This document shows positions 18,391-44,629 of a stretch of DNA of 64,000 bases, piece by piece. Below the pieces are notes generated by a model. The model worked only from the letters and a program-made list of their open reading frames with translations. It searched no databases and was not told where the DNA came from. The position numbers were made by a program, and so were the translations under genes. Source of the stretch: Homalodisca vitripennis. Its lineage: Eukaryota; Arthropoda; Insecta; Hemiptera; Cicadellidae. Numbering within the stretch: position 1 is the stretch's first letter; each line of letters begins with the position of its first letter. Location: positions 248,001 through 312,000 of the forward strand of contig NW_025776200.1 in assembly GCF_021130785.1 (NCBI RefSeq), given 5' to 3'.

Positions 18391-18498
18391 ACTCAACAAT
18401 GACAGACTCTGATAGACCTTCAACACCTAACCTCTTTGGAGGTAAGTACCAACATTTTGTAAAGTGTATTTTTGTTAATGTTGGAAGTTCTAATATTA

Positions 18499-20095
18499 AA
18501 CTCCTGGACAAAATTAACGCAGCACTAAATAATTTTCTTTTATTACTTATAAAAATACCTTATTTGTCTCATATTGTTACTCAGGATTCTTAGCTTGATA
18601 AAGGAAATATTGTGGCCAGTTGTTATCCTTATCTAATGTAATTATCTTATCTTAATGATTACAGAATTCCAATAGTGTGTTATGTGGACGTGTACAACCT
18701 TGCTCTTCTCCATAATGTGACTCACTGAAAATGTTTATCAGGGTAATGACATTTCTCCTCTCAGTCTGCGCCTGAGTTTACTTTGTGGTGGAAGTGCAAC
18801 AGCAGTATGCCTCGATTCTTGACACCGAGAGAAGCGGCTAGAATAAGGTTTTTTATACAGCAGGGGCGTTCGTATAGAGAAGTTGCTGCTTTGATTGGCA
18901 TACACAACACAACACAACTGTACGAGAGTGGTTCAGCGGTATCAAGAAACCAGGAGCGACAATAGGAGGCGAGGTCAGGGCCGTCCTCGGGCTACAAGCG
19001 AAGCTGACGACCGTTTTGTAAGGCTAAACACATTAAGAAATCGTACTTCAACAAGTACAGAGCTGCAAGCAATGTTAAGAACAACTCGAAATGTCCAAGT
19101 TACAAGTAGAACTATACGCCGACGTCTCCATGAAGCCACATTGAGCAGCAGAAGACCTGCCAGAGGCCCACTTCTCACCAGAAGGCATCGAGTAATGAGA
19201 TTACGGTTTGCTCAAAATCATGTCAATTGGACTGTGGAGGATTGGAAGGCAGTCCTATTCACTGATGAAACAAGAGTCAGTCTGAGGTCTCCGGATGGAC
19301 GAGAGCGTGTATGGAGAAGGCATGGAGAACGTTTCGCTCAGGCCTGTTTCTCACCTCAGGTACCTTTTGGGGGTGGTTCTGTTATGTTTTGGGGAGAAAT
19401 TAATTATGAGGCGTGTACAGAATTAGTAACAATAGCTAGACCAGCTCTAAACGCTCCTAGGTATGTAGAGACTATACTACAAGAACATGTTTGTACCTTT
19501 TGCACCTTTCGTTGGCCCTCAGTTTGTGCTAATGCATGATAACGCCAGACCACACAGTGCCGCAGCAGTGACAGACTACTTAAGAGAGGTTGGTATCACT
19601 ACCCTGGAGTGGCCACCAAGAAGCCCTGATTTAAACCCAATAGAGCATGTGTGGGACACTTTAAAAAAACGAACACGTGCTAGAAATCCACCTCCAGCAA
19701 ACCTTGCAGAGCTGGAACGTGCTGTAACAGAGGAGTGGCAGGGAATACCTATTGTAGATATCCAGCACCTCATTGAAGGTATGCCTAGGAGGCTCCTGGC
19801 AGTGATTCAGGCAAGAGGGGGTAATACCCGTTACTAAATAAGGGGAAATTAACTTTCAACTAAAGTGGAATAATTATAATGTGTTAAATTACGTAAGTAG
19901 TTAAATGGATAAATTAATTCATATTAAATTATAATTTTTTATTCATTAAATCTTGACATAACTAACCATACACAGATTTTATTGAGTTTTCATTGTCTTT
20001 TTCTCTTAAATATATTTTTTACAGCATGGTTAGATATTTATTAATAACTTAGAAAATGAATTTAATAAGTGCTGCGATAATTTTGTCCAGGAGTG
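18499..20095 (+). mobile_element. Tc1-type transposon in the GGQN-3 intron
   Basis: Left end AACTCCTGGACAAAATTAAC and right end (reverse complement) CACTCCTGGACAAAATTATC share about 28 bases of inverted repeat including CGCAGCACT. TA duplications lie at 18497-18498 and 20096-20097. The insertion is wholly inside the first intron of GGQN-3 and leaves both splice sites intact. Confidence 0.93.
18807..19837 (+). pseudogene. Tc1 transposase (DD34E type), frameshifted
   Basis: ATG 18807 gives MPRFLTPREAARIRFFIQQG and an HTH (SYREVAALIGI). After a shift near 18920 a basic GRPRA linker follows, then the second HTH, then FTDETRVSLRSPDGRERVWR (first Asp), GGGSVMFWGEI, MHDNARPHSA (second Asp), and WPPRSPDLNPIEHVWDTLKK (Glu). 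The D-to-E spacing fits DD34E. Another frameshift lies near 19500 just before PQFVLMHDNA. Most of about 340 codons are open, so the copy is fairly young but inactive. Confidence 0.93.
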
Positions 20096-20998
20096 TATAT
20101 TGCTAAAGGTTATTTTTATTGACATATTTTTTATGATCTGTTAAAATCATTATTTTTTTTGATTAGGCATTTCCAAAATACTTTTGTTTTAGATGATGAT
20201 TCGGATGCAGATCCAACTTACCGGGCCCCGAATGATGTCGATAATATGAATTCGAGTGATGCTGAGAGTTTTGAAGGTAAGCCTAATATTTATTAAAAGT
20301 TAAATGACAGTTTATTAGAAGTTACATTACAGGGCCAGCATTAAAGGTTATGTTAACCTAGTTCAACACTTATTCATGTAATTATTGTTTGTTGATTGTT
20401 TCAGATGATCGAGGAAACATACAAGCTGAAGAACTAGGACCACCACCAAAGAGAGCTAAACACCCTTGAAGGAAAAAGACCCGAAGAAGCCACTTATGGA
20501 AAAGTAATATTGATAAAAGTAACGGCAATGAGGGTAAATCTTATATAGATAGGAAAGGGAATCAACACGGAGGAAAGCAGGTAAGACAGTACACACATCA
20601 ATGCAGATTTAAGTGTAATGAAAATATTGATGAACAGCAGAGACAAGAAGTTTTCAAAAAGTTTTGGAAGCTAGGCAATTGGGACCTCCAATCATCCTAT
20701 TTGGGCTCATTAGTGTCTTTTGAAGAACCAACTAGGAAGAAAAAGGAGGGAAGAGGATCAAAATCACTGAGTTGTCAATATTCTTTACTTGGGAAGAGTT
20801 TGCAAAAAAATGTTTCTCGCTACACTTGATATCTCTAAGAGAATAACAAACGTTATTTAAAAAAAAAAAGAAAAGTTAGGTACCAGTAGGGTGTAGCCTT
20901 TCTCATGGCATAGGAATCCTTCCAAAAGATAAAAAAAGGCACAAAATTCCTGGCAATACGCTCAGGAATGCGACTGTTGAAGCAGCCAAAGACCACAT

Positions 20999-23673
20999 GA
21001 AGGGTCCAGGGGGAAAACGATCAAAGTCAAAAAACAAAAAAAAAATTGACATATTTATGTTTTTGTAAAGCTGAGTTGGAGCTCTACAACACAGCACTGC
21101 TGATTTTGTGGAAAAAACGATCATAGTCTAAAATATTAAAAGAAGAAAATAATACACACAGGGGAACAACGATCATGGTCACAGCGCTACTGTGAAAAAA
21201 AGATCATAGTCAACTTCCTGCCAGCTGGTCGGTCGTGATCATATGATTGTCTTGATTTGTTTAACACGTTGCATTTAAGGTTAAGTTGGCTCGCTTACTT
21301 ACAGTGCACTTAGTGTTTACTGTATTGGTATTTTAGTTTCTAAGTGCAGTTTTTTAATAATGAGTAGTAAGGACAGTGAAGAAGATCCTTGTGTTCTATT
21401 AGTCTACAAAAAAGAGAAAGAAAACTGGCCGACTATCAGAGGTCAGTAAGAGATTAAAGTACCAAACTTTGGAAACTGGGGACCCTTGTAACTGCAAACG
21501 GTTTAAATGCTTTACAGAAATAACATCAGAAGAAAGAAAACAGATTATTCAAGACTTAAATCTCATGTCTGGGTATAATGAACAGAATGCGCATTTGAGT
21601 GGCCTTATTTCCATTCACGAGGTGAGCAAACGTAGACCTAGGCCAGAATCTGAAAATCCTAGACCTAATGATTGCTCTTATTCATACAAAGTTTGTGTGA
21701 AAAGAGAAGGGACAGTAACAGAATTACCTGTTTGTCATAAAGGCTTTATGTCACTTCATGGCATTACAAACGGAAGAACCATAACCTTAAAAACTGCACT
21801 TGCAGTTCATGGAAAAGCACCCATTGATAACCGTGGCAAACATATAAACAGACTTCACAAAATAAAAGGTTCAACCTTCAGAAATGTGTGTGATCATATA
21901 AAATCGTTCAAAAGCCGTAAGGCTCACTACAGCCTTCATGACAGTTCAAAAACCTATTTAGATGAAAACTTGAACATTAAAAAAATGCATGATTTATACC
22001 TTGAAGGTAACCCACAACTAAAAGTTTCTTATGAAACCTACCGTGACATTTTTAACAAACATTTTAATATAAGTTTCGGATATCCACGAACTGATACTTG
22101 TAGTCAATGCGACGAATGCAAATCAAAAATAAAACAACTCGAGGTCGATTTGAACAAAACAGGTATTTCAGAAGAAACAAAAACAAAACTGTCTGAAGAA
22201 ATAAAAGCCTTAGAAATTACCAACAGCGTTCACAAAGCAAAAGCTGAAAAAATTTTACAGCATTAAGAGGCAGTCAAGAAAGTCAATTATGAAATCTAAT
22301 GTAAAAGACTCAACTTGTATAGCTATGGATTTCCAAAAAAACCTCCCGATCCCAAACTTAAGCACAAATGACGTGTACTACAGAAGGCAATTGTCTTTTT
22401 TCATGTTCAATATTCATGAACTCCCCAGTAAGAAATCATTTTTTTTTCACATATGTTGAAACAGTAGCCAGAAAGGGATCAAACGAAGTTACGTCAATGT
22501 TGTATCACTATTTAACATGCTTAATGAATCCTAATGTTCGCCATTTAAAAATCTTCTGCGACTCTTGTGGCGGGCAAAACAAAAACTATGTGTATTTAAG
22601 TTTTTGTATTCAGTTGTGCATCACTTAGATATCTTGGATACTGTATCAGTAATTTATCCTATTCGGGGACACACATACCTCGAATGTGGCAAAAATATGG
22701 CCCTTATTAACCAAAAATCACCTTGTGAGACTTCTGATGATTGGAGGGACGAAATAATAAAATCCCGTTCAAAACCTGAACCCTTTGTTGTTATTGACTG
22801 TAAGCAAGACATGTTTTATTCGTGGAATTAAAACTTATCACAATTTTTCCCAAATCTTGTCCTTTTCCAACACGACCACTTAGGGAGTTAAAAGTCACCA
22901 AAGAAGAAGTTGGACATTTTTTGCACAGAGACTCATTTTTCAGGAGCATTTACTGCAAGTAGTGTGCTAAAAAAACCCGTGTGAAGATCTAAACATGTGA
23001 AAACTTCCTCTAACCCTAATGTTGAGCCAACACCATACAACACAGATCTCTTAAAACCTATGTATGCTGGCCCGTTATCGGTAAGCTAGGCTAAGTTTCA
23101 GGACTTGATGCATCTTAAACGCTTCTGCAATCCAGTGGGAAAAGAATTTTTGGAAAATCTTACCCCTGCTATTCAAGTTGAGAGTGAATCCGAAGTGGAT
23201 GACGAAGACAACTAAAAGAGATTTTGTCTATGTGTTTATTTTACTGAACATTTGACTTGTTTTTTTACACTATATGACTTAATATTAATTATTCTTTCTC
23301 TAATTTTTTAATACAGACTGAGTTTTTCAATACAACCAGGAGTATGTTATTGAATTAACCTAACCTATTAACCAACTTAATAAAAAATACGATAGACTAT
23401 GATCGTTTTTTTGGCATTTTTTCATAGACTATGATCGTTTTTGCCGGTCTGAATTGTAGTTTAAGAAGAAAATGCTGTTTCATTCGGCTCTTAAAGTGGT
23501 TTATCAAAAATGTTTTCTCTGTTTTTGGTAATAAAAAGATATGTATATATTATTACAAATTTGATCATACAAATTTTACCACTAAAGTACAATTCAAACA
23601 TTATGCAAAGTTTAAAATTCATATTTCTCAAAACTACTTTCGGTGACTATGATCGTTTTTCCCCTGGACTCTT
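20999..23673 (+). mobile_element. GGQN-2 transposon, inserted in GGQN-3
   Basis: The left end GAAGGGTCCAGGGGGAAAAC and right end (reverse complement) AAGAGTCCAGGGGAAAAAC are inverted. Host bases CACAT lie on both sides (20994-20998 and 23674-23678), a 4-5 bp target duplication. The motif AAAACGATCATAGTCA occurs at about 21014, 21114, 21165 and 21195. It is inverted at 23393, 23425 and 23643. Total length 2675 bp. Removing it with one CACAT rejoins the GGQN-3 frame (KDH-IRSF). Confidence 0.88.
21360..23215 (+). pseudogene. GGQN-2 transposon protein, lightly broken
   Basis: ATG 21360 gives MSSKDSEEDPCVL. After a shift it reads GDPCNCKRFKCFTEITSEER (cysteine motif) and SGYNEQNAHLSGLIS. The 21469-22266 frame is open for 265 codons and includes CHKGFMSLHGITNGRT and ISFGYPRTDTCSQCDECKSK. 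An EETKTKLSEEIKALE coiled coil follows. Then come DVYYRRQLSFFMFNIHELPS, EVTSMLYHYLTCLMNPNVRH, FCDSCGGQNKNYVYL and RGHTYLECGKNMALINQ. The C-terminus ends VESESEVDDEDN. The acidic residues around FCDSCGGQNK are candidate catalytic positions (inference). Four or more shifts or stops split it. Confidence 0.8.
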
Positions 23674-24541
23674 CACATCCGTTCTTTTCCAAAATATAGT
23701 AGCCACTACTCCCGTAGCCAGGCTCCAAATAGGAAGTATCTCAGTCCCAACTTAAACTTAAAAAAATTATTTAGCCTATACAGTGATTATTGTAAAGAGA
23801 GACAGATTGAGGCGGTAAAAGAAAGTTATTATCGTTATTTGTTCAACAACCACTTCACTTGAGTTTTTACAAGCCTCATACTGACACATGCGTGACATGT
23901 GATGTGTGGTCTCCAGACCACTATTGACAATGGACAACCACATGAAAAAGAAGCAGCGCAAACAAAAAAAGAATTACATCTGCGTAAAGCAGAAAATGCC
24001 AGGAAACTTGTTCAAGATGCCCAAGAAGAGGTTAAAAGTGATCCAAGTCACATATCAATATGTTTTGATTTACAAAAGATGCTTCCTTCTCCTGTTCTTA
24101 GGTGTTCCAAGGTATATTATGCACGACAACTGTGGACTTATAATTTCTGCGTTCACAATTTGGGAAGTGGAATAGCGTGTATGTACATGTGGTATGAAGG
24201 GCAGGCTGCCAGGGGCTGTGAAGAAATGCTATCTTGCCTATTAAAATTTATAGGCACCCTCCCTAACAACGTCAAAAAATAACTATGTTCAGCGACAACG
24301 CAGGTGGCCAAAACAAAAGTAGATTTACAGTTAAGTTTTGGTTATACGTAGTCAGGACCACACACATTGAAAAGGTTGATCACAAGTACTTAATGTCTGG
24401 ACACTCGTACAACAAGTGCGATAAAAACTTTAGCGTTATTGAAAGAACCCGCAAACAATCACAGAGAGGGATATTTGTGCCTCAAGACCGGATGGATGTT
24501 GTTGCTAAATCATCTAAAGTTGAACTAAATGCAGAAGGGTA
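23674..24541 (+). pseudogene. GGQN-3 protein, middle part
   Basis: Continues GGQN-3 after GGQN-2: IRSFPKYSSHYSRSQAPNRK, YLSPNLNLKKLFSLYSDYCK, ESYYRYLFNNHF, then (shifted) LSFYKPHTDTCVTCD, aligning with FGYPRTDTCSQCDEC of GGQN-2. Core motifs follow: SICFDLQKMLP, YYARQLWTYNFCVHNLGSG, YMWYEGQAARGCEEMLSCLL, FSDNAGGQNKSRFTVKFWL and MSGHSYNKCDKNFSVIERTR. The frame stops being GGQN-like at the TA (24540-24541) where Sailor-1 entered. It resumes at 43774 as PSVFKFDF. Confidence 0.85.
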
Positions 24542-24961
24542 TTGGGACGAGCTCGACCGAAGACAGCCGAACTGCCCCTCACGAAGGCTCGCCCTACCGC
24601 TCCACCAATCACAGCCGAGCACTTTCCTTTACGACGGAGGCAGCGTTGTCACGTCTCCTCTGTTGTAGCTGTCATCCGGTAGGTATCAGCTGGGTGATGC
24701 GCAGTAGCAAACCGTGCTTCATTACGTCATTGGTTGTTGGTTATGTATGTTGTTTCGTGTGGTGTTATTGCGCTTCTGTGTGTTCGTGGCCAAGTGTTTA
24801 AACAGTATTTTTCAAGACTAAACCTTATTTGAAAGACAAGTGTACGCACGTACTTTCTTGTGTTACATTTTTGTGACAGACATTATTTAATTACTGTTAA
24901 TTCCGTACCATGTCTCAGTGCACTGAAACAGTGATAAAAACGCGGTAGGCCCCGCACTCGC

Positions 24962-26388
24962 GTGATAAGTGTGCCTTACACCAAGGTTGGAGAAAAAGGC
25001 GTGCCATTGCGAGGCCAATCCCGGGAGTTGGTTTGTCGAGTGAGAGACTACTTCCAGCGAGAGAAAATTAACAAAGGACCGATACTTCCAGTAGAAAAAG
25101 TTATCGAAAGAACTGCTGCGGCTTTGGAGATAGGAAACAATACAGTTGTGATAATTGGAAAGGAGAAAATACAAAGTGAACAGAGTGGCTTGAAACTGAA
25201 CACTCTCGATAAGAAATATTCGAGGTTTAAGCCTGTTACGGAGCTGGACGCCTTTCAAAAAGATGCCATCCGCCGCCATGTCTACGGATTCTTCGTAAGA
25301 AGAGAGTATCCCACAGTAAGGAAGCTACAAGTAAGTCTTGCAGAAGCAGATCTTTTTCGTGGAAGCAAATCATCTATTGCCATTATATTGAAGAGATTGG
25401 GTTTAAAACACAAGAAATTTGGCAGCCGTAAAATATTAATGGAAAGATGAGATATCATTGCTTGGAGGTGCAGATTTCTTAGAGAAATAAAAGATTTAAA
25501 TTTTGAGGAAATAGTTTGGCTTGATGAAACTTGGGTAAATTCTAGGCACTGTAAAAAAATTGGATGGACTGATGATTCTGTTGAAGGTACGTATCCTGTT
25601 CCCGTTGGAAAAGGGGGGAGGATAATTCTTTTGCATGCTGGCAGCTCTGCTGGATTTATTCCTAACTGTGCATTACTTTTTACATCAAAGAAACCAACGA
25701 GTATCATGAAGAGATGAACCACTAAGTATTGTCAAAACGTTTTCAAGATGCTTTACTTCCAAACCTAACGAGGCCCTCGCTCATTGTAATGGACAATGCA
25801 AAGTACCGCTCAAAAGTAGTTGACAAACCACCTAACAGCAGTTCTAGAAAGGATGAAATAATAGAGTGGTTAAATAATCATGACATACATTATGAAAAGG
25901 CGATGTTAAAAGCCGAATTGTTAGAACTTATTCAAAGAAACAAACCTCAGACAAAATATGAAGTCGACGAAATTGCGAAGAAACATGGTCACCGAGTACT
26001 TCGTCTGCCACCATACCAGTGTCACTTCAATCCTATAGAATTAATCTGGGCTCAAGTAAAGGAATATGTTGCAAGAAGCAACAGGAAATTTAACATAACT
26101 GAAATATTACAGTTGACGAAAGAGGGGTTGGAACGTGTAACAGAGTCTGATTGGAAGAAGGTAGTAGACCACACGAAGAATATAATCCTAGATGCTAGGA
26201 AAAATGAAGGGTTGATGGAATACTCCGTTGAGCAGATGGCAATAAACATCGGCAATGACAGCTCCAGTGAAGAGGATTCGGACAGTGACAGCAGCGACAA
26301 TGCAGAGGAAGAACGCGGCAGTAACGTGAGTGGTATTTTCCCTCTCTCTCCGGTGGCAGAAAGAGTGTTGGACTTCGATGAACTGTAA
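24962..26388 (+). pseudogene. Sailor-1 transposase (DDE_3 fold)
   Basis: A basic GRPR-like stretch precedes PYTKVGEKGVPLRGQSRELV and an HTH region. KRLGLKHKKFGSRKILMER is followed by an in-frame TGA (25448). Then come IVWLDETWVNSRHCKKIGWT (first Asp) and RIILLHAGSSAGFI. After a second break near 25715 come LIVMDNAKYRSK (second Asp) and PPYQCHFNPIELIWAQVKEY (Glu). Eighty-one residues separate the last Asp and Glu, far more than the 34-41 of Tc1/mariner families. I recall a published IS630-related group named Sailor (DD82E), and this fits it. The acidic tail ends ERVLDFDEL. The start codon is uncertain. Confidence 0.82.
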
Positions 26389-27296
26389 AAAGCCGTATTG
26401 ATTGATAGTTTGTAATGATTGGTAAATATTACACCTTACATGTTACTAATAAAATTTGTTAAATGCATTTTAATGGCACTACTTATTTCCTGGTTAAACT
26501 GTGCAGCAAAGTCAGTTGGCTTTTTGTATATGTACTGTTTAGTATTTAATTTACTCAGAAATAAAAGTAATTTCCAAAGAGGTTTTAACCAATTATAAAA
26601 TGGGCGCTATTGAAAAATAAATGAAAAAATTATAAGACTTAAATAAAAATAATTGACTCACTAAAACATTTTGTAAATAAATCCACGTTTTCTATATATC
26701 AAATTGATTTCCAAAATTAAATGATAAGAAAATAAAAAAAAAATATATCCTTCATCACAAATCTGTGGTTTAAAGTTAGTAACATTTAGTAATAGATTAA
26801 AAATATAACAAGTTTCGAAATATTTTTACAGATCTTTTGTCAAGTAATTAGATTACATTAACCCTTCAAGCTGGTTTGACGTGTATTTAACGTCATGACG
26901 ACATTCCGTCATGTGGTGAAACCTGTCGTTATTTTGGTGAACTATATCGGACTCGGGCTATATGGAATACGTTGTCTATGAGTTGGTCGATCTTTTGCAG
27001 CTGTTTGCAGTCGAAAATGAGTGCGACAGAGACAGCTGTATTGTTTACAAAACTGAGCATCTGACCTTGACATTGTGCGTACTCAGTTCGTTCGCGCCGG
27101 TGCAACTTGTTACTATGCAATGCGTTCTGTGATTGTTGTCTTGTGTTTTTAATATTCTTTTGTTGAATAATATAATGGCAAGCTACATTTTATAGTTATC
27201 CCAATCAGTGTTGTAACTTTAGAATCACGTAGGAGTGTGTATAACTTACATTTATAATGTAGGTTATTGTGAAATGTGCAGCAACGTGTTGGATAT

Positions 27297-27793
27297 ATAT
27301 ACAGGGTGTATATTATGTCTGGAAACACCCAAATATATCCTTTAATAATTTAAATATAAATTTGAAACCTCTTACAATCGTGATAGAGATTGGGCATCTA
27401 CTTTTTGGAACAATGTTTTGTTATGTCACACCAACGGGGGACGTCCTGCCGAGGGTATCGTGAATATTCTTAATGGAAGCCTATACCTTGTGTAAATTTT
27501 CAATACTAAAAATGCTCTATTTTCTGATAGAATAATTCCCTTGAGATGCGGTTTGTGGCATTCAATTCAGTAAGCTATTACCTTTAAAATTATGTATCAC
27601 AAGGTATAGGCTTCCATTAAGAATATTCACGATACCCTCGGCAGGACGTCCCCCGTTGGTGTGACATAACAAAACATTGTTCCAAAAAGTAGATGCCCAA
27701 TCTCTATCACGATTGTAAGAGGTTTCAAATTTATATTTAAATTATTAAAGGATATATTTGGGTGTTTCCAGACATAATATACACCCTGTATAT
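27297..27793. repeat. Foldback element: 196-bp arms, 105-bp loop
   Basis: The left arm (27297-27492) and right arm (27598-27793) appear identical in inverted orientation, starting ATATACAGGGTGTATATTAT and ending GCCTATACCTTGTG. The loop (27493-27597) has no ORF. Such hairpins are typical of foldback or MITE-type non-autonomous elements. A TA or TATA target duplication is possible but cannot be separated from the AT-rich ends. Identity of the arms implies recent formation or insertion. Confidence 0.92.
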
Positions 27794-27864
27794 CTTTGTT
27801 TGGTTAGAGTGAGGTTATTTTCGGGAGTGTTATTGCATTTAATTTTTCTTTTTGTAATTCTAAA

Positions 27865-32517: not shown

Positions 32518-32656
32518 TACAAAAACCCACAAGAGAGTGCAGTTGAGGGAGGAGCCTATTTTGCCCGTGACCTTGGAGCGGCCAACGAGAACTGAGCGAC
32601 GTTGCCAAACTTGTTCCCCGCTGTAACCACAAGCCGCGCGAGTCCAGCGTTCTTAA

Positions 32657-33674: not shown

Positions 33675-34657
33675 TTAAAATACTTAACCGTTACGCTCGA
33701 AAGAAATGTTAGAGCTGTCTTGAATTAATTAACTACGTATTACAAAATGTAATTTTACGGTCATTTAAAAAAAAGTACATCTCTGTAGCTTATTTCCATG
33801 TTGAGTTAAATGGATTGAAATAAATTATTGTATTATATTACTCATATACGAAGATCGTAGGATTAAAATCTTTAGCCGAAATATAAATAAAAAAAAAAAC
33901 ATAAAAATACCGCTAAAACGTTAATTTCCCGTATTTTCAATTTGGTAAGAAAGTTATCAAATACATCTGAAATATATGTTCTTTTCCATAAATATACTTA
34001 TTCAGTGCATAACGGTGGGAATTGTTGCCGCAACGGTTTTGTTACGCACTTCGGTTCTCGTAAATTTATAACCATTTGAAAGCAATTTTCCTACCTGGCT
34101 ATTAATAGTCTTGAATTTGTGTTATGTAAAATTGTTTTCACACATGGGTGATTTAAATATTTAAACTGGCCATAGTTGAAAAATCATACAGCACAAGTAT
34201 TTTTATAATATGAATGCACTTTCTTATAAAATTCTAAAGTAACGGTTTTCTATAACACCCAATGAAATTTGAACACAGTACACAATAGATGATGTCAGAC
34301 GAGTGAAAATGTGGAGGAAACGGGTGAAATACCTGTAAACAAAAGCCGCACCAGCCAGCAGTGGTGGTAATACCAGACGGATGAGTCATACTGTTTCCAA
34401 GAAAGAGCCCCTTCCTCCTTCCGGTCTCTGACCGTCAGTCAGTGCCTATTGTCGCTTAATCAGTGGCGGTTGAAAATACTACATTCTCTTCAATTCCAGT
34501 ACGCGTATATTATTTTGTGCTGAATTTTACTGTTGATGAACGTTTTCGTGTTTTTAAGTGTTGAATATTGGTAGCTATTATAAGTGTACCGATTATTTTC
34601 TGTGTAGTGTCATTAAATTGTAATATACTTGTTATTGTGATTCCTTATTTGGACAAA

Positions 34658-35035
34658 ATGGAGTGTGATGATGTTTGTTCAAGTGCACAGCCATCCGGAA
34701 GTAAGAGCGGTAGTGGAAAAACCCTACGTAGTGGAGAACGACGCCGTATTATTTACAACGTTTACAAATTTTTCAAAAAACTGTCGTCGACAAATTTCCG
34801 ACAAACTCTAAACTTTAAGCAAAGTGGTAAACTGTGTGCTGAGGCCTGCGGTGTAAGTGAAAGAACCGTTAACAAAATAAGTAAAGAAGCTAAGCTGTCC
34901 GAAGAAGATGGACGTTCAAAGAAGTCGAAAATCAAAAATAACAGGCTTTGATGACTTTGAAAAAGGTGTTTTGAGACGAACTGTCCTTTCGTGCTACGAC
35001 AGAGGGGAATTTCCCACATGAAAAAGAATCACGCA
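34658..35035 (+). pseudogene. Sailor-2 transposase, N-terminal part
   Basis: ATG 34658 gives MECDDVCSSAQPSGSKSGSG. Then comes SGERRRIIYNVYKFFKKL, an HTH segment AEACGVSERTVNKISKEAK, and after a shift FDDFEKGVLRRTVLSCYDRG, the counterpart of LDAFQKDAIRRHVYGFFVRR in Sailor-1. A TGA follows EFPT. The frame reaches GGAT (35036-35039), the Gypsy target site. Confidence 0.85.
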
Positions 35036-35039
35036 GGAT

Positions 35040-36170
35040 TGTAACAGGTCAAATTACGACATTTGAATATTCGCGGGGAATTGGCAGACTGTGACGTCAA
35101 TGAATCGGCAGACTGTGACGTCAGTGAATCACATGTTGTCGGAATTGAAATTTAACTAATAACGAAGAAATTTATTGAACTTTATACGGGAAAAGATTTG
35201 ATTAATTAAAATGAAGTAAACATAACCAAAATTCGTGTTTTACAAAAACATTAAATAGAATTACGCAGAAAAGCCAATTTTGGTATGAATGACTTGTATA
35301 TTGATGACGCCATAAAGCACATGTTGCTAAAAAATTTAAATAAAAAGCTTTGAAAAAATAATAAAAAGAAAATAGAAATACTTAAATTGATTAATTATAG
35401 TAAACGTGATAAATTTCGACAATTATAAAAAAAGAATCAAATTAAATTTATTCGTGAAGACGCTGATTTGAACGAGAGAAGGGATGAATGAGTATTGTTT
35501 TGAGTCGGTATCCGTCGTTTTATACGGAGATTCCTTCTTCTTTCACCAGACTCGAAGCAAGGAGGTTGTGTTAATTCTTCTGGGATAGTAATGATCTGTT
35601 GTATAGTGTATTGAAATTTAATCAAGGATGGGATATTGTTTTAGACTTTTAAATTATTAAAGCATTGCAAGGTGAGTGAAATTGTAATATGTGTTGAGAG
35701 TGTGACATTTAATAAATTAATCTCGTGGTCACTTGGTTTGACTTTCTTTGAATATCCCTTTTATAAAAAGTGTGGAGTGATATTAAATTTTGTAATCATT
35801 ACTTAACATATTTTGGAACCCTGACATACACACAGACTTGTCTCTGGTGATAACACCAGAGACGTTCAAATTAAATAAGTTTTGAGTAATACCGAGGGAA
35901 TACAGCTAGCATTGGGCAAGATGGCGACCGATACCATGATGAGCAACATGGTACAACAACGTGCCACTGGTGACAAAGGGCGTACAACTACATGGTGAGT
36001 CAATAACTCTAAAGAACTGACTTTCAGCAAATTATCGCAACCAACGTGGGGGTGACACACAGCAAATTGGCGTTATAACCGGGGGACACTCATCAAAAAG
36101 GCGCAGCAACGAGGGGCCTTCATCAAATTGGCACCAGAACGTGGGGCTCACATCAAATTTACATTCATCA
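35040..36170 (+). repeat. 5' LTR of the Gypsy element
   Basis: 1131 bp, TG...CA bounded. It contains the tandem words GGCAGACTGTGACGTCAATG / GGCAGACTGTGACGTCAGTG near the start. Near 35820 there is a short hairpin (TCTCTGGTGATAACACCAGAGA). Compared with the 3' LTR it shows only scattered substitutions plus one missing duplication, so insertion is not very old. Confidence 0.92.
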
Positions 36171-36173
36171 AAA

Positions 36174-36232
36174 TGGCGCCCAACGTGGGGCTTTCATAAA
36201 AAATGGCGCCCAACGTCGGGCTCGAACTTCCA
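36174..36232 (+). other. tRNA-Lys primer-binding site, two copies
   Basis: TGGCGCCCAACGTGGGGCT begins 3 bases after the 5' LTR and is complementary to the 3' end of eukaryotic tRNA-Lys(CTT) (established tRNA sequence). A second copy, TGGCGCCCAACGTCGGGCTC plus GAAC, follows 13 bases later and extends further into the T-arm complement. Degenerate copies are also present inside the LTR end (36040-36150). Confidence 0.88.
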
Positions 36233-36473
36233 CAACTAATTTAACTAGGTTAGTGGTAGCATATTTTAGACTAAGTAAAAATCACTGTTTTTATATAATT
36301 GTATTTTCAGGTGTGTGTCTAGAAGAAGTATGACAAATTATAGTCTATAAGTTTAATAACTTTGAACAACCTAGTTATAATATAAATTGGTAAAAATTTC
36401 CTGGTAGGCTAGTAAAACAAAAATAAGGCCTAAATTAATATTAGAAATTTTCAAATTAAACATAGGCTACAAA

Positions 36474-37421
36474 ATGGAAGGCGAACAAAATAATGAAGGA
36501 CCCGCACCAATATTTATACCAGTAGAAATAGATATTCATAGCTCAGGAGATACAGGGTTTTTAGGTTGGTCATCCCCTAATACAGTAGAACAGGAGGTGT
36601 CGACAACAGATGACAGAAATTCATTAGAGAATGAGGTTAGCAGAGTTAGTAGTCCAGTAGGAGTTGATAGGGGTGAAGGTCTTATTGCATTCATGAGGAC
36701 TATGATGAATAGTCTGAATGAAAAGATGGATAAAAATAATGAGGGATTAAGGGATCTGAATCATAAAATAGATCAGAATAATGAGGAACTAAAAAAGGAA
36801 ATTCAAAGAAGTAATGAGCAGTTAAAACGAGACATGGAACAGATGAGAGGTGAGTTAAACAATAAAATAGTAGAGACAACGGAGGTTATGAGAGTAGAGA
36901 TAAATAAAGACTTAAATACTTTAAATAAAGACTTAAAGAACTTGGAGGAGTGGGCCAGACTTGAAATAAACGAACAAGCTGAGAAAAACAAAGGTGAGAG
37001 GAATAAACTTAAAAGTCAGGTTAGAGGAGAGATTACTACGGAGATAAAGAAATTAAAAGATAAAAGAGAAGAAGATATGAGGGAAATTGAGAAAAGGTTT
37101 GTACACATTGAGGAAGATAAAAAGAAAATAGATCAAAGATTAGAAAAGTTAAATAAGAGATTTAAAACAGGATTAGATGAATTAAATGGTAGAGTAGATA
37201 GGGACAGAACTAACTTAGAACTTGACCAGGTCTTAAGTAGATTAAAAGAAGGAGGAATGACAATCAAACTAAAAAAATCACAATTTTTAAGAAAAGAGAT
37301 AAATTATTTAGGATACATTATTTCAGCTGAAGGAATTAAAATGGATAAAAATAAAATTGAACAAATAGTGAATTTCAAACGACCTATAAACATAAAAGAA
37401 CTAAAGAGATTCATAGAATAA
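36474..37421 (+). CDS. Gag coiled-coil / RT-fragment fusion protein
   Basis: A 315-codon open frame from ATG 36474 (MEGEQNNEGPAPIFIPVEID). After about 80 acidic residues comes a long coiled coil rich in heptads (NEKMDKNNEGLRDLNHKID through KKKIDQRLEKLNKRFKTG, about residues 85-245). Such a region is plausible for Gag multimerisation. The last 65 residues, from LDQVLSRLKEGGMTIKLKKS through YLGYIISAEGIKMDKNKI to KELKRFIE, are the palm-thumb end of a Gypsy RT, downstream of the lost YxDD. An internal deletion thus joined gag to late RT in frame. It cannot supply RT activity; any role would be structural (inference). Confidence 0.85.
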   Translation: MEGEQNNEGPAPIFIPVEIDIHSSGDTGFLGWSSPNTVEQEVSTTDDRNSLENEVSRVSSPVGVDRGEGLIAFMRTMMNSLNEKMDKNNEGLRDLNHKIDQNNEELKKEIQRSNEQLKRDMEQMRGELNNKIVETTEVMRVEINKDLNTLNKDLKNLEEWARLEINEQAEKNKGERNKLKSQVRGEITTEIKKLKDKREEDMREIEKRFVHIEEDKKKIDQRLEKLNKRFKTGLDELNGRVDRDRTNLELDQVLSRLKEGGMTIKLKKSQFLRKEINYLGYIISAEGIKMDKNKIEQIVNFKRPINIKELKRFIE

Positions 37422-37483
37422 GAGTAAGTCAGATTAGTATAGGGTTGTATAAATATTTAGAATAAGATGTGACAAGGATAATG

Positions 37484-38696
37484 GGATCTTTTCCGTTATG
37501 TGTCAGCAATTTCTATTTATTGTCTATGAGGCAAAACTGAGTGGAATTCACTTTGTAATGGAAGAATAGGTATTTTTAGATAATACAAACTGCCGACAGT
37601 AGTTATAACCGGTTGGACTTTGCCCGTCTGGACAAGATAACGAGGCGGCGCGATAACGGAGCCACGGTAGCGGTGCAGTCAGTTCCTGCTCTTGCCTGTG
37701 CGTGTATTGTTGTCCTGTTTAGTCGTCTTAGTGTGTTTAATGCTGTGTAATGAATTTTATCCAGTTGGTTGAAAGTTGTAAAAATGAAGAAGACGCTGTG
37801 TCGTTTTTCCAGAAAAAAGGATTGTTACACAATCCACGTAAATGTGCGAACGGACATGAAATGAAATTATATTTACAAAATCGATTCCGTTGGGTTTGTA
37901 ATAAAACAACGTGCCGCGAGTACAAACAATTGCGTCAAGACACATATTTCACCGGCTCAAAGTTACCTTTTCGAACAGTTCTGTTTTTCATATATTGTTG
38001 GTCACAAGAATTGACGTCGACAAAATTCTGCGAAAAAGAACTTGGTATAAATCATGGAACTGCGGTGGACTGGAACAATTACATGCGTGAAGTGACCGCG
38101 AGTCACTTGGTACAAAACCCTATTGTAATTGGCGGACCTGGCCTGACGGTTGAAATTGACGAAAGTTTATTTGCTCGCCGGAAAAATAACGTCGGTCGTG
38201 TTATTCCAGAACAGTGGGTTTTCGGTGGAATCTGTAGAGAAACTAAAGAATGTTTCTTGGTTGCCGTCGAAAATAGATCAGCCACACAATTAATTCCAAT
38301 AATTAAAAACTACATTCGAAGTGGAACGACAATCATTTCAGACGAATGGAAATCATATAAACAATTGTACAAACACGGTTATGAACATTTTACTGTTACT
38401 CATAAATACAATTTTGTTGATCCGGAGACAGGTGCTCACACACAAACGGTTGAAAGTAACTGGCGGCTTGCAAAACATCGGAATAAAGTTCAGTGCGGTA
38501 CGCGGCGCTCTATGATTGACTCATATTTGTGTGAATTTTTGTGGCGTCGCCGAAATCGTGATAAAGACTTATTTGAACAAATTATTAGTGATATTGTCGC
38601 CTACTGGCCTCCAGAATAAAGGTATGTGGTATTTGTTTTATTACAAAGACATAGAAATAATTTTTAGAAATTGCTGACACATAACGGAAAAGATCC
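37484..38696 (+). mobile_element. Merlin transposon, intact, with 8-bp TSD
   Basis: 32-bp inverted ends that look perfect, GGATCTTTTCCGTTATGTGT then CAGCAATTTCTA (left 37484-37515, right 38665-38696). GGATAATG is duplicated on both sides (37476-37483 and 38697-38704). Merlin elements make 8-9 bp duplications. Length 1213 bp with one uninterrupted transposase ORF. It lies inside the Gypsy body. By these signs it is the best-preserved element in the window. Confidence 0.96.
37750..38619 (+). CDS. Merlin (ISXO2/IS1016-type) transposase, intact
   Basis: 289 codons from ATG 37750 (MNFIQLVESCKNEEDAVSFF), no break. The N-terminal zinc ribbon has C-x(4)-H (KCANGHEMKLYLQNRFRWVC) and C-x(4)-C (CNKTTC). 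An HTH-like stretch follows (STKFCEKELGINHGTAVDWN). The DDE_Tnp_IS1595 catalytic core shows LTVEIDESLFARRKNNVGRV (first Asp/Glu), TTIISDEWKSYKQLYKHGYE (second Asp), and HTQTVESNWRLAKHRNK (third acidic position). Length matches known Merlin proteins. ATG 37750 is the first in frame. Being complete and flanked by perfect repeats, it may be active (inference). Confidence 0.95.
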   Translation: MNFIQLVESCKNEEDAVSFFQKKGLLHNPRKCANGHEMKLYLQNRFRWVCNKTTCREYKQLRQDTYFTGSKLPFRTVLFFIYCWSQELTSTKFCEKELGINHGTAVDWNNYMREVTASHLVQNPIVIGGPGLTVEIDESLFARRKNNVGRVIPEQWVFGGICRETKECFLVAVENRSATQLIPIIKNYIRSGTTIISDEWKSYKQLYKHGYEHFTVTHKYNFVDPETGAHTQTVESNWRLAKHRNKVQCGTRRSMIDSYLCEFLWRRRNRDKDLFEQIISDIVAYWPPE

Positions 38697-38994
38697 GGAT
38701 AATGTAATATAGTAGATAGTATATGTAATATGTTTCCAGTAGGAGATGACAATATAAGGATATTACAATATTGTTTATCAGTAAGAATATGTTTAGGATT
38801 TTTACAAAGTATTTGTGTATTATTATAACTTGTGAGTGTATAATCTAATAGAGTTAACTTGTATTGAACAATATGTTATGTGAAATGGACACGTTAAACA
38901 TTATATTCAAAACGTATAGAGGTTACATGTATAAAATTTAAAAATATTTAAAACTTTAGTACTGTTCTTAGTAATAGTAACTTTAGTAATATAT

Positions 38995-39205
38995 ATATTC
39001 ATTGATATTTGTATTAATTGTAATTTGTGTAATTGATTTATATGTACATTGTAATTTGTGTAATCATTTAATATTCATTGTAATTTGTGTAGCTGATTTA
39101 TATATTCATTGATATTTGTATTAATTGTAATTTGTGTAATTGATTTATATGTACACTGTAATTTGTGTAAACATTTAATACATTGTAATTTGTGTAATAT
39201 GATTG
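38995..39205. repeat. 107-bp tandem repeat in the Gypsy 3' region
   Basis: ATTCATTGATATTTGTATTA occurs at 38997 and 39104, each followed by ATTGTAATTTGTGTAATTGA and TTATATGTACA. The shorter module TTGTAATTTGTGTAA recurs about six times. No ORF. It lies between Merlin and the 3' LTR. Confidence 0.8.
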
Positions 39206-39360
39206 TAAGCTTTGCTTTGATATTTTACTTTCTTTTAAATGAATACTTTTAAACAAAATTATCAAGAAATTTAAATAATAGCTTAATTGGACAAAAATTT
39301 AAAAGATTTAATTGGAGGAGAAATATAACAAATATGTGATCAATTTGTATTTGGGGGTTG

Positions 39361-40591
39361 TGTAACAGGTCAAATTACGACATTTGAATATTCGCGGGGA
39401 ATTGGCAGACTGTGACGTCAATAAATCGGCAGACTGTGACGTCAGTGAATCACATGTTGTCGGAATTGAAATTTAACTAATAACGAAGAAATTTATTGAA
39501 CTTTATACGGGAAAAGATTTGATTAATTAAAATGAAGTAAACATAACCAAAATTCGTGTTTTACAAAAACATTAAATAGAATTACGCAGAAAAGCCAATT
39601 TTGGTATGAATGACTTGTATATTGATGACGTCATAAAGCACATGTTGCTAAAAAATTTAAATAAAAAGCTTTGAAAAAATAATAAAAAGAAAATAGAAAT
39701 ACTTAAATTGATTAATTATAGTAAACGTGATAAATTTCGACAATTATAAAAAAAGAATCAAATTAAATTTATTCGTGAAGACGCTGATTTGAACGAGAGA
39801 AGGGATTAATTGATTAATTATAGTAAACGTGATAAATTTCGACAATTATAAAAAAAGAATCAAATTAAATTTATTCGTGAAGACGCTGATTTGAACGAGA
39901 GAAGGGATGAGTATTGTTTTGAGTCGGTATCCGTCGTTTTATACGGAGATTCGTTCTTCTTTCACCAGACTCGAAGCAAGGAGGTTGTGTTAATTCTCCT
40001 GGGATAGTAATGATCTGTTGTACAGTGTATTGAAATTTAATCAAGGATGGGATATTGTTTTAGACTTTTAAATTATTAAAGCATTGCAAGGTGAGTGAAA
40101 TTGGTAATATGTGTAGAGAGTGTGACATTTAATAAATTAATCTCGTGGTCACTTGGTTTGACTTTCTTTGAATATCCCTTTTATAAAAAGTGTGGAGTGA
40201 TATTAAATTTTGTAATCATTACTTAACATATTTTGGAACCCTGACATACACACAGACTTGTCTCTGGTGATAACACCAGAGACGTTCAAATTAAATAAGT
40301 TTTGAGTAATACCGAGGGAATACAGCTAGCATTGGGCAAGATGGCGACCGATACCATGATGAGCAACATGGTACAACAACGTGCCACTGGTGACAAAGGG
40401 CGTACAACTACATGATGAGTCAATAACTCTAAAGAACTGACTTTCAGGCAAATTATCGCAACCAACGTGGAGGTGACACACAGCAAATTGGCGTTATAAC
40501 CGGGGGACACTCATCAAAAAGGCGCAGCAACGAGGGGCCTTCATCAAATTGGCACCAGAACGTGGGGCTCACGTCAAATTTACATTCATCA
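39361..40591 (+). repeat. 3' LTR of the Gypsy element
   Basis: 1231 bp, same TGTAACAGG...ATTCATCA ends as the 5' LTR. It is about 100 bp longer because a segment starting ATTAATTATAGTAAACGTGA and ending GAACGAGAGAAGGGA is tandemly duplicated (about 39710-39908). A G-rich stretch, TATTTGGGGGTTG, directly precedes it and may act as the polypurine tract. Confidence 0.9.
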
Positions 40592-41632
40592 GGATCTCAA
40601 ACAAAAACTTGATTACAACGGATCGGTAACTTCAACAAATAGATTATTAAAGGCATGTTGGTTTCAGGTATAAGAAAACCAATGATGGTAGAAAGTTTTT
40701 ATTGGAACGAAATGATATTGTAGCGGCTCGTTAAAAAATTTTGAGAACTATGCAAGAGCTTAGAGAATATGGTGATTGTAGTCCCATATATTACCTCGAT
40801 GAAACATGGGTTAATGAAAACCATACTCGAAAATACATATGGCAGGATACGACTGAGTCTGGTGGACTAAAGGTTCCTCTCGGCAAAGTTAGAAGATTAA
40901 TAATTTGTCATGTCGGTTCGGCAAAAGATGGGTTTTTGCAAGAATGTAAGTGGGTTTTTCGGTCTAAGACATCATCCAGTTCGGCCTATCACGATGAAAT
41001 GAACGCTGAATCGTTTAGAAAATGGTTTAAAAAATTGCTATGCATTTTGGAAGAAGGCTCGATCATCGTTATGGACAATGCTCCATACCATTAAGTACTC
41101 GCCGAGGAAATTTCCAAATTCATCGTGAAGAAAGGAAGAGATTCAAAATTGGCTGTCTCGAAAAAACATACAATACTGTATGAAAGAAACGAAACCAGAA
41201 CTTATAATGAGGGTTCTCCCATATAAAACCCAACAAAAAACTTATGAACTCGACGTATTAGCCAATGAAATGGGACATACAGTTGTCAGGCTCCCTCCTT
41301 ATCACTGCCAGTACAATCCCATTGAAATGGTATGGGCTCAAGTGAAGGGAGAGGTAGCACGTAATAATAAGACATTTAAAATAACCGACGTTGAGAAACT
41401 TGTTCATGATGCTCTGGACAAAGTGACTAAAGAAGACTAGCAATCAAGAGTTCAGCACGCAGAAGCCTTGCAGCAAGCTGATTTTGAAAAGGAATGTATC
41501 CGCACAAGTGTTGTAGAGCAAATAATTATAAACTTAGCAGACAATTTTGACACGAGTAGCAGTGAGGCAGAAAGTGAAAATGAAGAAGACTCCGAGGTTT
41601 TGGCTACGATATTGCCGCCTGAGAGCGAATAA
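40592..41632 (+). pseudogene. Sailor-2 transposase, C-terminal part
   Basis: Continues after the Gypsy element (DLKQKLDYNGSVTSTNRLLK, then GRKFLLERNDIVAAR, counterpart of SRKILMER in Sailor-1). The frame 40741-41094 holds PIYYLDETWVNENHTRKYIW (first Asp), RLIICHVGSAKDGF, AYHDEMNAESFRKWFKKLLC and SIIVMDNAPYH (second Asp), then a stop. The frame 41180-41440 holds LPPYHCQYNPIEMVWAQVKG (Glu). An acidic tail ends at 41632 (LPPESE). Its long second-Asp-to-Glu gap matches Sailor-1. Confidence 0.87.
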
Positions 41633-42246
41633 ATAATATACAAGTGCAAAGGTAAGAATATTATTACGTCAATCATGCTTTTTAACGTATTTCATTTTAA
41701 AACAGTAGGCCCTAAAAGTTATTTAGTGGAAAATTTGATTATTTCATAATTTAAAAATATAATTGTTCGATAATTTTTAACATTGATTATATTGTTATAT
41801 TTTTTAATTATTTTTAATCAAGCAACACGACATGCAGTTTGCAATATAAGCAAAATGTATATTAATTTTGTGTGTGTTTAGTAATCGTTTAAAATCACTG
41901 ATAAGATTGTTGTATCGTATGGAAATAAGGAAGTACTTTACTCTGACTAACTGACGGGACGATTTGTTTGTTTTAAATCGATAGTTAGTTTGTAATAACA
42001 TTAATAAACTATACAAGTAATTTAAATATAATATAGCAAACTGTCAACGCATTTTAAATATTGTTTTTCAATTATACTGATAAGTTTTAAATGTTCAGTA
42101 TCAGTGTTAGTTGTGACAGCGCAGCGGTTTTGTCAGCCACAATGCGCCAGCCGTGCCGGGCGGCAGCGGCAGTTGTGTGGCAACGTCGCGCAGGCCAGTC
42201 CATTCTATTGATCGCCGCCAACTGCACTCTCTGGTGGTTCCTTGTA

Positions 42247-42615
42247 TAGAAATGTGTGTCTGGCAAAACGCAAAATGCGAATGAGTTGCTGCATGGGGTG
42301 GTCTGGTCCAAATGCCCTAAAACTTCTTTTTCCTCCAGAAAAAGGTTAGAAATTGGAGTTTGTGAGGCTGTTTGCCAATACAACACTGGAGTTTATAAAA
42401 GTGTTCATGATATACAGTCAACTGGAGGCATCAGTCCTGGCTCAGATATGTCAAAGGTAGCCAAGCGTTTCGACCGACACCGTCTTCGAATCGCTAAATA
42501 TCGTAAAGACATGAAGTATTCAGAGTATAAAAGAAAAGTTAGACAAGCCCAAATGCGAGAGGAAGAGAGAAGAAAAGAAATTGAGGGACCTACCTATGGA
42601 GCTGGGGAGTTTTAA
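42247..42615 (+). pseudogene. MULE-2 transposase, C-terminal part
   Basis: Resumes right after Sailor-2 with KCVSGKTQNANELLHGVVWS, aligning with KCLHGGTQNPSESLKNMIWS of MULE-1 and KCVHGKTQNQNESFNNMIWT of MULE-3. The C-terminal charged helix (KYSEYKRKVRQAQMREEERR) and the end GPTYGAGEF match the MULE-1 end. A TAG is created at the junction (ALC-stop-KCV); with one TA left the frame otherwise continues. Confidence 0.88.
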
Positions 42616-43771
42616 ATAATGCATGTTTAGCAATGTAAGTGCAGTATTCATGTTAGTATATGTACGTTAGGCCTAATTTACAATAATTTTCGTTGTGTCA
42701 CAATTACATCTTTCCTTTGTTTGAACAAATAAAATTTTATAACCACCTGAAAGTGTTGCTAATACTTTTATTTATTCCCCATAAAAGTGCAACAATAAAA
42801 AAAGTCCATATAAAGTAATATGTTTGACTATAACACTCTAGTAAGTCATAAAACCGAGGTAAATTTTCAACGCGCGATTCCCGAAAATCGAATTTTTGGC
42901 TGTTATTAATTTTTAAATTGATATAACTCAAAAACTATTTGTACCACATCATTCAAATTTTTACCAAGGGTTTAGGGTATTGTAATCTACACATTTAGGT
43001 AGAATTATACATGTATGGTCATAAGAAAAAAAATATGATTTTTTATAAATGTCAAATCAAATTTTTAAACCTAAAATATTTTTTAAAATGACACCACAGA
43101 TTTGTTTATTGAGATAAAGTTATAATTCTACCTAAATATTTCAAGGCAGTTGTAAGCTACAAAATGATAGTTTATTTGTCAAAATCTAATCAGTATAACT
43201 GGAGTTATATTAAATCTTGGTAGTTACCTAAAAATTTTACAAAAAAATTATATGTAATATATGTATATAAAATTTTTTTTATTTCCTATTTGTATATTCT
43301 TATACCCCAGAAACACACATGCAAAGTTTCAAAGGCCTAGTGATAACCTTATTAAAGTTAGTAATTTCAGTGCCATATCCCCTTAACGAATATAATTTTA
43401 GTTCTTTTCACTATACTCCTTGGTGTTTTGAAGGTAACTATTAATAACAGTAAAATGTACCATATTCAAATTATTGTTATTAGGCCTATGTATATATATT
43501 TTCAATAATACACTCGTGGTTTCAGTAAAAATCCTTTACAATGTTTTGATTTCTGACTCAGTTACTTATAAAATAACAATTCTCAAAACAACGATCACTA
43601 TTAATTGATCGCTTCGATAAATGTGTTCACATGTTTCCGCTGCGAACCACCCACCCCTACCTAGAAGCGGTTGATGTGAACGATGATCGAGTCAGACAGA
43701 ACAACTTGGCAACACTGCAGCCGACCGGTCCCGAAGAGCCCCGAACCTCGGCCATCGCTGCCGGGTCTCAA

Positions 43772-44252
43772 TACCCTTCTGTCTTTAAATTCGACTTTAA
43801 AATGTTTTTGGAGACTCAAATGCAAAATGAGGAATTTCTCAGCTTGGATTCCTTAGAAAACGACTATGTCAAGACAAACAAAGGCATTCGAGGAATGCAG
43901 TGGCTTCGGTTTACAAAGTCAGATCCTTTCACATTGTTGTACAAAACGACATTCAATAGGACATGCCATTTTCCGAGTACAACATGAAACCTGAAGTTTA
44001 AACCTGGGCGAAGATCACAACACCTTGCGTCAGAGCTACAATCCAAACCAAATGTTCCAGGAATCAAGCCAAACAAGTATAAGGACTTCAAGGACTTGCT
44101 AACTGCTAACATTTATTCCCCTATGTCATCATGCTTTCTATAATGACCTACCAGTCCGTTCAGGCCAACAGCTCCGTAGACAGACAGAGCCTAATGATGA
44201 TGGTGATAATGTAGAAAAAGAAGACCTCATTTTGGACAGTGATTCAGACTAA
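43772..44252 (+). pseudogene. GGQN-3 protein, C-terminal part
   Basis: Resumes after Sailor-1: PSVFKFDFKMFLETQMQNEE, FLSLDSLENDYVKTNKGIRG, MQWLRFTKSDPFTLLYKTTF. After shifts it continues with KPNKYKDFKDLLTA and an acidic end DLILDSDSD. The K-x(3)-DL-x-x-LL module matches ISKAKFNDLQDLKKFLP of GGQN-1 and VPKLKDIKSILHLIP of GGQN-4, defining a conserved C-terminal domain of the family. Two or three frameshifts are present. Confidence 0.78.
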
Positions 44253-44629
44253 AATACTGGGGCCTATTTATTTTAACTGTAATTGTTTTCAATAATGGCT
44301 AAGTTTAGACATTTTCTTACTTTTTAATCAGTTTTAAAATAATAACTTGTTGCTCATTTTGTTCAATTTTCTCTTATTACCTCTTTTCCTTTGGAAGCCA
44401 AGGGGTACTAGTGATACCTCTTATCATTTTCACAATATTACAGGCTGTTGTTTTTTTTTTTAGTTTTTTTGGTATATTGTTAATAGTTTGGGAATAAACT
44501 CTAGAATAACATAAATATTAATTTTAACATAACAAAATATTCATGAAATGGATCAAAGTGTTTTAACTTTGACATGCCATATCTCAAGACTTTGAAAATG
44601 TCACTCGTACCCCTTAGCTTCTCACCCCC

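What the first reader, a model, noticed from the sequence alone, without database searches (positions are those of the whole stretch)
18399..44252. Six-level nested transposon stack that can be undone base by base
GGQN-3 contains Sailor-1, which contains MULE-2, which contains Sailor-2, which contains a Gypsy element, which contains Merlin. At the coding junctions the host frame rejoins after removal: NAEG-Y-PSVF at the TA around Sailor-1, SAALC-(stop)-KCVSGKTQN at the TA around Sailor-2, and QDLKQKL at the GGAT around Gypsy. GGATAATG flanks Merlin. The order of insertion is thus fixed by logic, giving a relative clock for five superfamilies.
Basis: seen in the sequence. Interest (0 to 1): 0.9.

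Follow-up and report, generated by a model that had tools for sequence, protein, structure and literature searches.

The report
Six mobile elements nested in DNA

Summary
The stack is real: GGQN-3 > Sailor-1 > "MULE-2" > Sailor-2 > Gypsy > Merlin. I checked it against copies in the same 2.3-Gb assembly. Empty sites were seen for Sailor-1 in GGQN-3 (3 of 3 copies read), "MULE-2" in Sailor-1 (5 of 5), Sailor-2 in "MULE-2" (3 of 3) and Gypsy in Sailor-2 (the 1 informative copy of 5 stretches). Merlin rests on an exact 8-bp duplication and family-wide ends.

Corrections: NAEG-Y-PSVF is not host sequence but lies inside Sailor-1's inverted repeat; the true site is 25-26 bp further out (SSK-MFLE). 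The "stop" at Sailor-2 is a frameshift reading, although the TA cut is right. "MULE-2" looks like Kolobok (TTAA target, GGGG..CCCC ends). QDLKQKL at GGAT and the GGATAATG pair are right.

The claim that logic fixes the order is weakened at the outermost step: junctions of GGQN-3 with Sailor-1 recur at two other loci, so that pair was probably copied as a unit. Three inner junctions had no second crossing copy among 40 scored rows each. One nest orders copies, not superfamilies, and six levels is no record (wheat 3B: up to 8 layers). Known kind, well documented.

The parts
18380..44631 (+). GGQN-3, outermost element (DUF7869 protein). Right terminus CACCCCCTC at 44631; left terminus not found in the window, homology to longer copies begins at 18380
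   Evidence: copies L009, L010, L011; full-length family copy L009 5296-8418 with a 41-bp inverted repeat; Pfam DUF7869
18499..20095 (+). Tc1-like element in a GGQN-3 intron, TA duplication 18497-18498 / 20096-20097
   Evidence: empty sites in L009 and L010; Pfam DDE_3
20999..23673 (+). GGQN-2 inside GGQN-3, CACAT on both sides (20994-20998 / 23674-23678; 4 or 5 bp)
   Evidence: empty sites in L009, L010, L011, L012; 25 of 25 homologs with both flanks (75 tested) exact
24517..43797 (+). Sailor-1 with everything inside it; TA at 24515-24516 / 43798-43799 (reads TAAA on both sides); ends AAGTTGAAC..TTCGACTT
   Evidence: empty sites L009-L011; family ends in L017-L027
26862..29814 (+). piggyBac-type element inside Sailor-1, TTAA 26858-26861 / 29815-29818
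   Evidence: empty sites in L012 and L015 and in L021 and L025; L013 by BLAST only; Pfam DDE_Tnp_1_7
27297..27793 (.). foldback element (196-nt perfect arms) inside the piggyBac
   Evidence: no empty site sought
30141..43382 (+). 'MULE-2', here read as Kolobok-type: GGGGATATGGCACTG..CAGTGCCATATCCCC; right TTAA 43383-43386, left TTAA reduced to AA 30139-30140
   Evidence: empty sites L012, L013, L015, L021, L025; family copy with TTAA at both ends; Pfam PF20700
32518..42246 (+). Sailor-2 with its inserts, TACAAA..TTGTA; TA at 32516-32517 / 42247-42248
   Evidence: empty sites in three copies, L070, L073, L076; 27 of 40 rows are Sailor-2-side matches
32657..33674 (.). TTAA-flanked element without a long ORF inside Sailor-2 (TTAA 32653-32656 / 33675-33678)
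   Evidence: part of it recurs in another Sailor-1 copy, L023
35040..40591 (+). Gypsy-type LTR element (LTRs 35040-36170 and 39361-40591), GGAT 35036-35039 / 40592-40595; coding part short
37484..38696 (+). Merlin, 292-aa open frame, 32/32 inverted repeat, 8-bp duplication GGATAATG 37476-37483 / 38697-38704
   Evidence: Pfam DDE_Tnp_IS1595

Best explanation
It is an ordinary nest of transposable elements made by five successive insertions along one path, plus at least five side insertions. Sailor-1 (IS630-Tc1-mariner type) landed at a TA in the coding region of GGQN-3, a DUF7869 element. Junctions of that pair recur at two other loci, so the pair was probably copied as a unit (step inferred; transposition or segmental duplication is open). 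In the window's copy a Kolobok-type element then landed at a TTAA in Sailor-1's 3' part, Sailor-2 at a TA in the Kolobok coding region, a Gypsy-type LTR element at GGAT in Sailor-2's coding region, and finally Merlin in the Gypsy with an 8-bp duplication. Shown: the containment and four of five empty sites. Inferred: that the inner events happened in place, from the absence of other junction-crossing copies among the rows scored.
For: Empty sites: Sailor-1/GGQN-3 3 of 3 copies read, which share flanks and so count as about one locus; Kolobok/Sailor-1 5 of 5 copies read, about three loci; Sailor-2/Kolobok 3 of 3; Gypsy/Sailor-2 1 informative of 5 stretches fetched. Protein registers over the junctions from separately aligned flanks. 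Merlin: 15 of the 16 loci with both ends found (20 loci, window's own included; some share a site) have an exact 8-bp duplication. Junction-crossing copies other than the window: 0 of 39 other rows for Gypsy/Sailor-2, although one row runs about 22 bp past the LTR start; 0 of 39 for Merlin/Gypsy, rows running at most 12 bp outside; 0 of 39 for Sailor-2/Kolobok. Pair copied: L017 on C14564 crosses the left junction; L012, L013 and L015 cross the right junction, and window and L012 share 12 sites against L021/L025 where each alone differs at 8 and 7.
Against: No empty Gypsy without Merlin was fetched. Only the best 40 candidates are scored in each genome search, of 85 to 736 in the first look, so rarer crossing copies could be missed. 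A search across Sailor-1/Kolobok did not complete. Sailor-2 carries more stops and frameshifts (8 in 466 codons) than its older container (3 in 619; one-sided P 0.046), opposite to a simple clock. C14564's Sailor-1 shares only 1 diagnostic site with the window, so a separate hit at the same site is not excluded there. No reads were available to exclude mis-assembly.
Confidence: 0.93

Rival explanations
1. The stack is partly an assembly artefact: unrelated repeats were joined by the assembler.
For: Very repetitive, 14901 contigs; near-identical contigs C5334, C5172 and C1893.
Against: Target duplications at the junctions and matching empty sites in independent contigs are not expected from chance joins.
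Confidence: 0.04
2. The inner elements did not land here one by one: larger compounds (such as Kolobok already holding Sailor-2 and Gypsy) moved in as units, so nesting order is not the order of arrival at this locus.
For: The pair GGQN-3/Sailor-1 has junctions at other loci, so such movement happens in this genome.
Against: No copy other than the window crosses Sailor-2/Kolobok, Gypsy/Sailor-2 or Merlin/Gypsy among the 39 other rows scored for each; copies empty for Kolobok exist at about three loci.
Confidence: 0.1
3. Two independent Sailor-1 elements hit the same site in different GGQN-3 copies, so the pair was not copied as a unit.
For: Sailor-1 is abundant (40 rows scored), and C14564's copy shares only 1 diagnostic site with the window.
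Against: The C5334 group shares with the window the same right border, CTTTAAAA against the family's CAACTATA, and 12 diagnostic sites.
Confidence: 0.2
4. MULE-2 is a true Mutator-like element that lost its 9-bp duplication.
For: Pfam names PF20700 'Mutator-like transposase'; the left TTAA in the window is incomplete; one of three family copies lacks TTAA on the right.
Against: TTAA on both sides of a family copy and in five empty sites; RR..YY ends; Kolobok is described with TTAA and RR/YY ends (PMC9587614, passages).
Confidence: 0.08

Closest known systems
Nested transposable-element clusters (wheat chromosome 3B: 30,199 nested insertions, up to 8 layers; PMC4290129, passages seen)
   Same: element-in-element insertions whose order is read from containment
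   Different: mostly plant LTR elements there; here one path runs through five superfamilies, mostly DNA transposons
REANNOTATE and TinT chronology (PMC2672092, PMC3014933; passages seen)
   Same: insertion order from nesting, LTR ages as bounds
   Different: they use many nests; this is a single nest
Sailor / DD82E superfamily (PMC8533490; passages seen)
   Same: DD81-82E spacing, TATA or TAAA flanks, insect-rich relatives
   Different: two reconstructed target sites fit a 2-bp TA duplication with TA/AA as element ends, not a 4-bp TATA duplication
Kolobok (PMC9587614; passages and section 10 seen)
   Same: TTAA target, GG..CC ends, CxxH motif
   Different: Pfam names the domain Mutator-like; no tree made here
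Merlin
   Same: IS1595-type transposase domain, 8-bp duplication; recalled family traits
   Different: nothing seen
DUF7869 / 'GGQN' proteins (PF25273)
   Same: and 15 homologs, including named Hydra and beetle proteins
   Different: no paper in the library holds the term DUF7869

Membership tests
Sailor (DD82E) | DDE triad with about 82 (78-111) residues between the second D and E | tested here: met
   Sailor-1 81; Sailor-2 about 85 on a frameshift-joined reading; of 120 homologs 83 have 82, 21 have 81, 3 have 83, 1 has 77, 12 not matched by the pattern
Sailor (DD82E) | 4-bp TATA target duplication | tested here: inconclusive
   Flanks are TATA in 8 of 11 Sailor-1 loci and TAAA in 3, one of these being the GGQN-3 site itself; but the empty sites read TTTGT-TA-GAAA and CATC-TA-AAAGG, which fit TA with TA/AA as element ends
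Kolobok | TTAA target duplication | tested here: met
   one family copy TTAA on both sides, one on the left only, a third not readable; empty sites hold TTAA in 5 of 5 copies; the window's left TTAA is incomplete
Kolobok | 5'-RR and YY-3' ends | tested here: met
   GGGG..CCCC
[quoted passage not shown] placement in a Kolobok tree | tested here: inconclusive
   CLNH is seen in the open frame 31172-32329; MuDR shares this motif; no tree made
Mutator-like (MULE) | 8-11-bp target duplication (recalled trait) | tested here: not met
   none at the window site; empty sites show none
Merlin | IS1595-type transposase, inverted repeats, 8-bp duplication | tested here: met
Gypsy-type LTR element | LTRs TG..CA, short target duplication, primer site, reverse transcriptase | tested here: met
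LTRs and GGAT; TGGCGCCCAACGTGGGGC follows the 5' LTR (name of the tRNA recalled and not tested).
GGQN-3 as a DDE transposon | RNase-H-like catalytic fold, inverted repeats, target duplication | tested here: inconclusive
   [not shown]

The most novel reading that the evidence does not exclude
The outer two layers are not a passive pile: a GGQN-3 carrying Sailor-1 was itself transposed to several loci as one compound element and then kept collecting insertions, so nested stacks can travel and multiply, and containment records the order of hits on a moving vehicle rather than the order of arrival at a locus. Side reading: DUF7869 is an undescribed DDE transposase superfamily, and Sailor's target duplication is TA, not TATA.
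Probability: 0.3. Interest if true: 0.55.

Novelty: new member of a known kind. Interest (0 to 1): 0.42.

Why it matters
It is a clean worked example in which nested-insertion logic could be checked against empty sites, and it shows two pitfalls: terminal inverted repeats can mimic an in-frame host junction, and a host can be copied with its passenger, so nesting gives order of hits only under a premise that must be tested. By-products are a candidate correction of the Sailor target duplication, reassignment of a 'MULE' to Kolobok, and evidence that DUF7869 proteins are transposase-like.

Tried and rejected
A left terminus of GGQN-3 in the window: not found. A decay clock from stops and frameshifts: counts do not follow nesting depth, and at the sites covered the window's Sailor-2 lesions are not shared by copy L079. 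The right end of the Sailor-1 copy on C4 was not in the stretch fetched. Left flanks of three short Sailor-2 copies read TATA, which does not separate TA from TATA (the script's split of these flanks failed and the strings were read by eye). One of the empty-site alignments for piggyBac (L013) was uninformative; its BLAST rows show the empty site. In VIA-align and Foldseek no particular transposase superfamily stood out for DUF7869; whether it equals a named superfamily such as Sola was not tested. Paper searches for nest depth; only the papers named were opened, as passages or one section; the others were seen as listings.
Full report
What was checked. The window is G000:C86:248001-312000 of a 2,304,811,887-base assembly with 14901 contigs.

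Junctions tested with proteins. Each host flank was aligned separately to homologs, and the residues between the two flanks were counted. Sailor-2/Gypsy: 108 of 120 tested homologs matched both flanks, 100 have exactly QDL's three residues, 6 have four, 2 are off. GGQN-3/GGQN-2, not in the finding: 25 of 75 matched both and all 25 agree with excision at CACAT.

Junctions tested with genome copies. GGQN-3 copies L009, L010 and L011 lack Sailor-1 and read CATCTAAA/AGG; their flanks are alike, so they are about one locus. Sailor-1 is a large family: of 40 rows, 1 is the window, 1 crosses into GGQN-3, and 38 begin between window 24498 and 24532, 26 of them at 24514-24515. Its ends are GTTGAATTAAAGACAGAAGG preceded by TATA in 8 of 11 loci and TAAA in 3, one of them the GGQN-3 site itself. 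Kolobok in Sailor-1: L012, L013, L015, L021 and L025 all read TTTAC/TTAACG; L012, L013 and L015 are near-identical and count as one locus, L021 and L025 have different flanks. Sailor-2 in Kolobok: three copies read TTTGTTAGAAAGATG. Gypsy in Sailor-2: of five stretches fetched one covers the site and reads GCAGGAT/CTCAAAC; three match only Sailor-2's right end, one gave no useful match. Merlin: 15 of 16 loci with both ends found, out of 20, have an exact 8-bp duplication; the 16 include the window's own, and some share a site.

Target duplications. The two reconstructed Sailor target sites, TTTGT-TA-GAAA and CATC-TA-AAAGG, fit a TA duplication with element ends TACAAA..TTGTA and AAGTTG..CGACTT. 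The published description is a predominantly 4-bp TATA duplication (PMC8533490, passages). TATA on both sides of a copy cannot tell the two apart, empty sites can; two sites are few. Kolobok: TTAA on both sides of copy C2138, on the left of C6, not readable in C3. Kolobok is described with TTAA and RR/YY ends (PMC9587614, passages).

Order of events. Containment gives GGQN-3, Sailor-1, Kolobok, Sailor-2, Gypsy, Merlin. This is the order of arrival at the locus only if hosts stayed put. For Kolobok/Sailor-2, Sailor-2/Gypsy and Gypsy/Merlin no second copy crosses the junction among the 39 other rows scored each; a copy crossing it would be expected at the top of the list, but only 40 of 736, 716 and 204 first-look candidates were scored. 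The same search over Sailor-1/Kolobok did not complete; there the five empty copies speak. For GGQN-3/Sailor-1 the left junction recurs on C14564, where the contig ends inside GGQN-3, and the right junction on C5334, C5172 and C1893. The latter copies lack 24061-26615, Kolobok, piggyBac and GGQN-2, and hold another 2.7-kb insert at 43607. So Sailor-1's landing probably predates the copying of the pair, and the copying predates Kolobok and piggyBac. I could not tell transposition from segmental duplication: homology to the window stops inside GGQN-3 on both sides (20363 and 43992) and no element ends were found there.

Ages. The two LTRs differ at 10 of 1131 aligned sites, K2P 0.0089. Merlin matches elsewhere are mostly 99-100% identical over the stretch searched, Gypsy LTR matches 94-98% besides the element's own other LTR, Kolobok matches 94-97% and Sailor-2 matches 97-100%, Sailor-1 matches 94-98%, GGQN-3's closest matches 91-93%. 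This is roughly in line with the nest, but these are different stretches and families. Against a simple clock, Sailor-2 has 5 stops and 3 frameshifts in 466 codons, its container 0 and 3 in 619; GGQN-3 has 1 and 6 in 469, Sailor-1 2 and 1 in 434, each with the first reference used (tests). Copy L079 does not share the window's lesions at 34919 and 35019 and differs at 40653.

Verdict. The nest is real and its containment order right. What is good here is that most levels can be checked against empty sites.

Noticed in passing
20999-23673: A second DUF7869-like element (GGQN-2) sits in GGQN-3 with CACAT on both sides, in-frame on removal; absent from four other copies.
   Followed up: yes
24061-26615; L012, L013, L015: Copies of the GGQN-3/Sailor-1 pair elsewhere share an internal deletion and a further 2.7-kb insert with about 50-bp inverted repeats at 43607.
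   Followed up: partly
26862-29814 and 27297-27793: piggyBac-type element in Sailor-1 with a foldback element of 196-nt perfect arms inside it, a parallel branch of the nest.
   Followed up: partly
32657-33674: TTAA-flanked element without a long ORF in Sailor-2; a piece 98.9% alike lies in a Sailor-1 copy on C104 (L023).
   Followed up: partly
39706-39910: The 3' LTR of the Gypsy carries an extra tandem unit of about 100 bp absent from the 5' LTR, so the LTRs are not a simple pair.
   Followed up: partly
36408-37421: The Gypsy's only long frame joins a coiled-coil-like part to a short reverse-transcriptase fragment, as if internally deleted.
   Followed up: no
[not shown]
   Followed up: partly
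18380: GGQN-3's homology to longer copies stops here; their left 440 bp and terminus were not found in the window, and 16000-18380 is full of other repeats.
   Followed up: partly
34640-41640: Sailor-2 is more decayed than the element that contains it (8 against 3 lesions, one-sided P 0.046), unexplained.
   Followed up: partly
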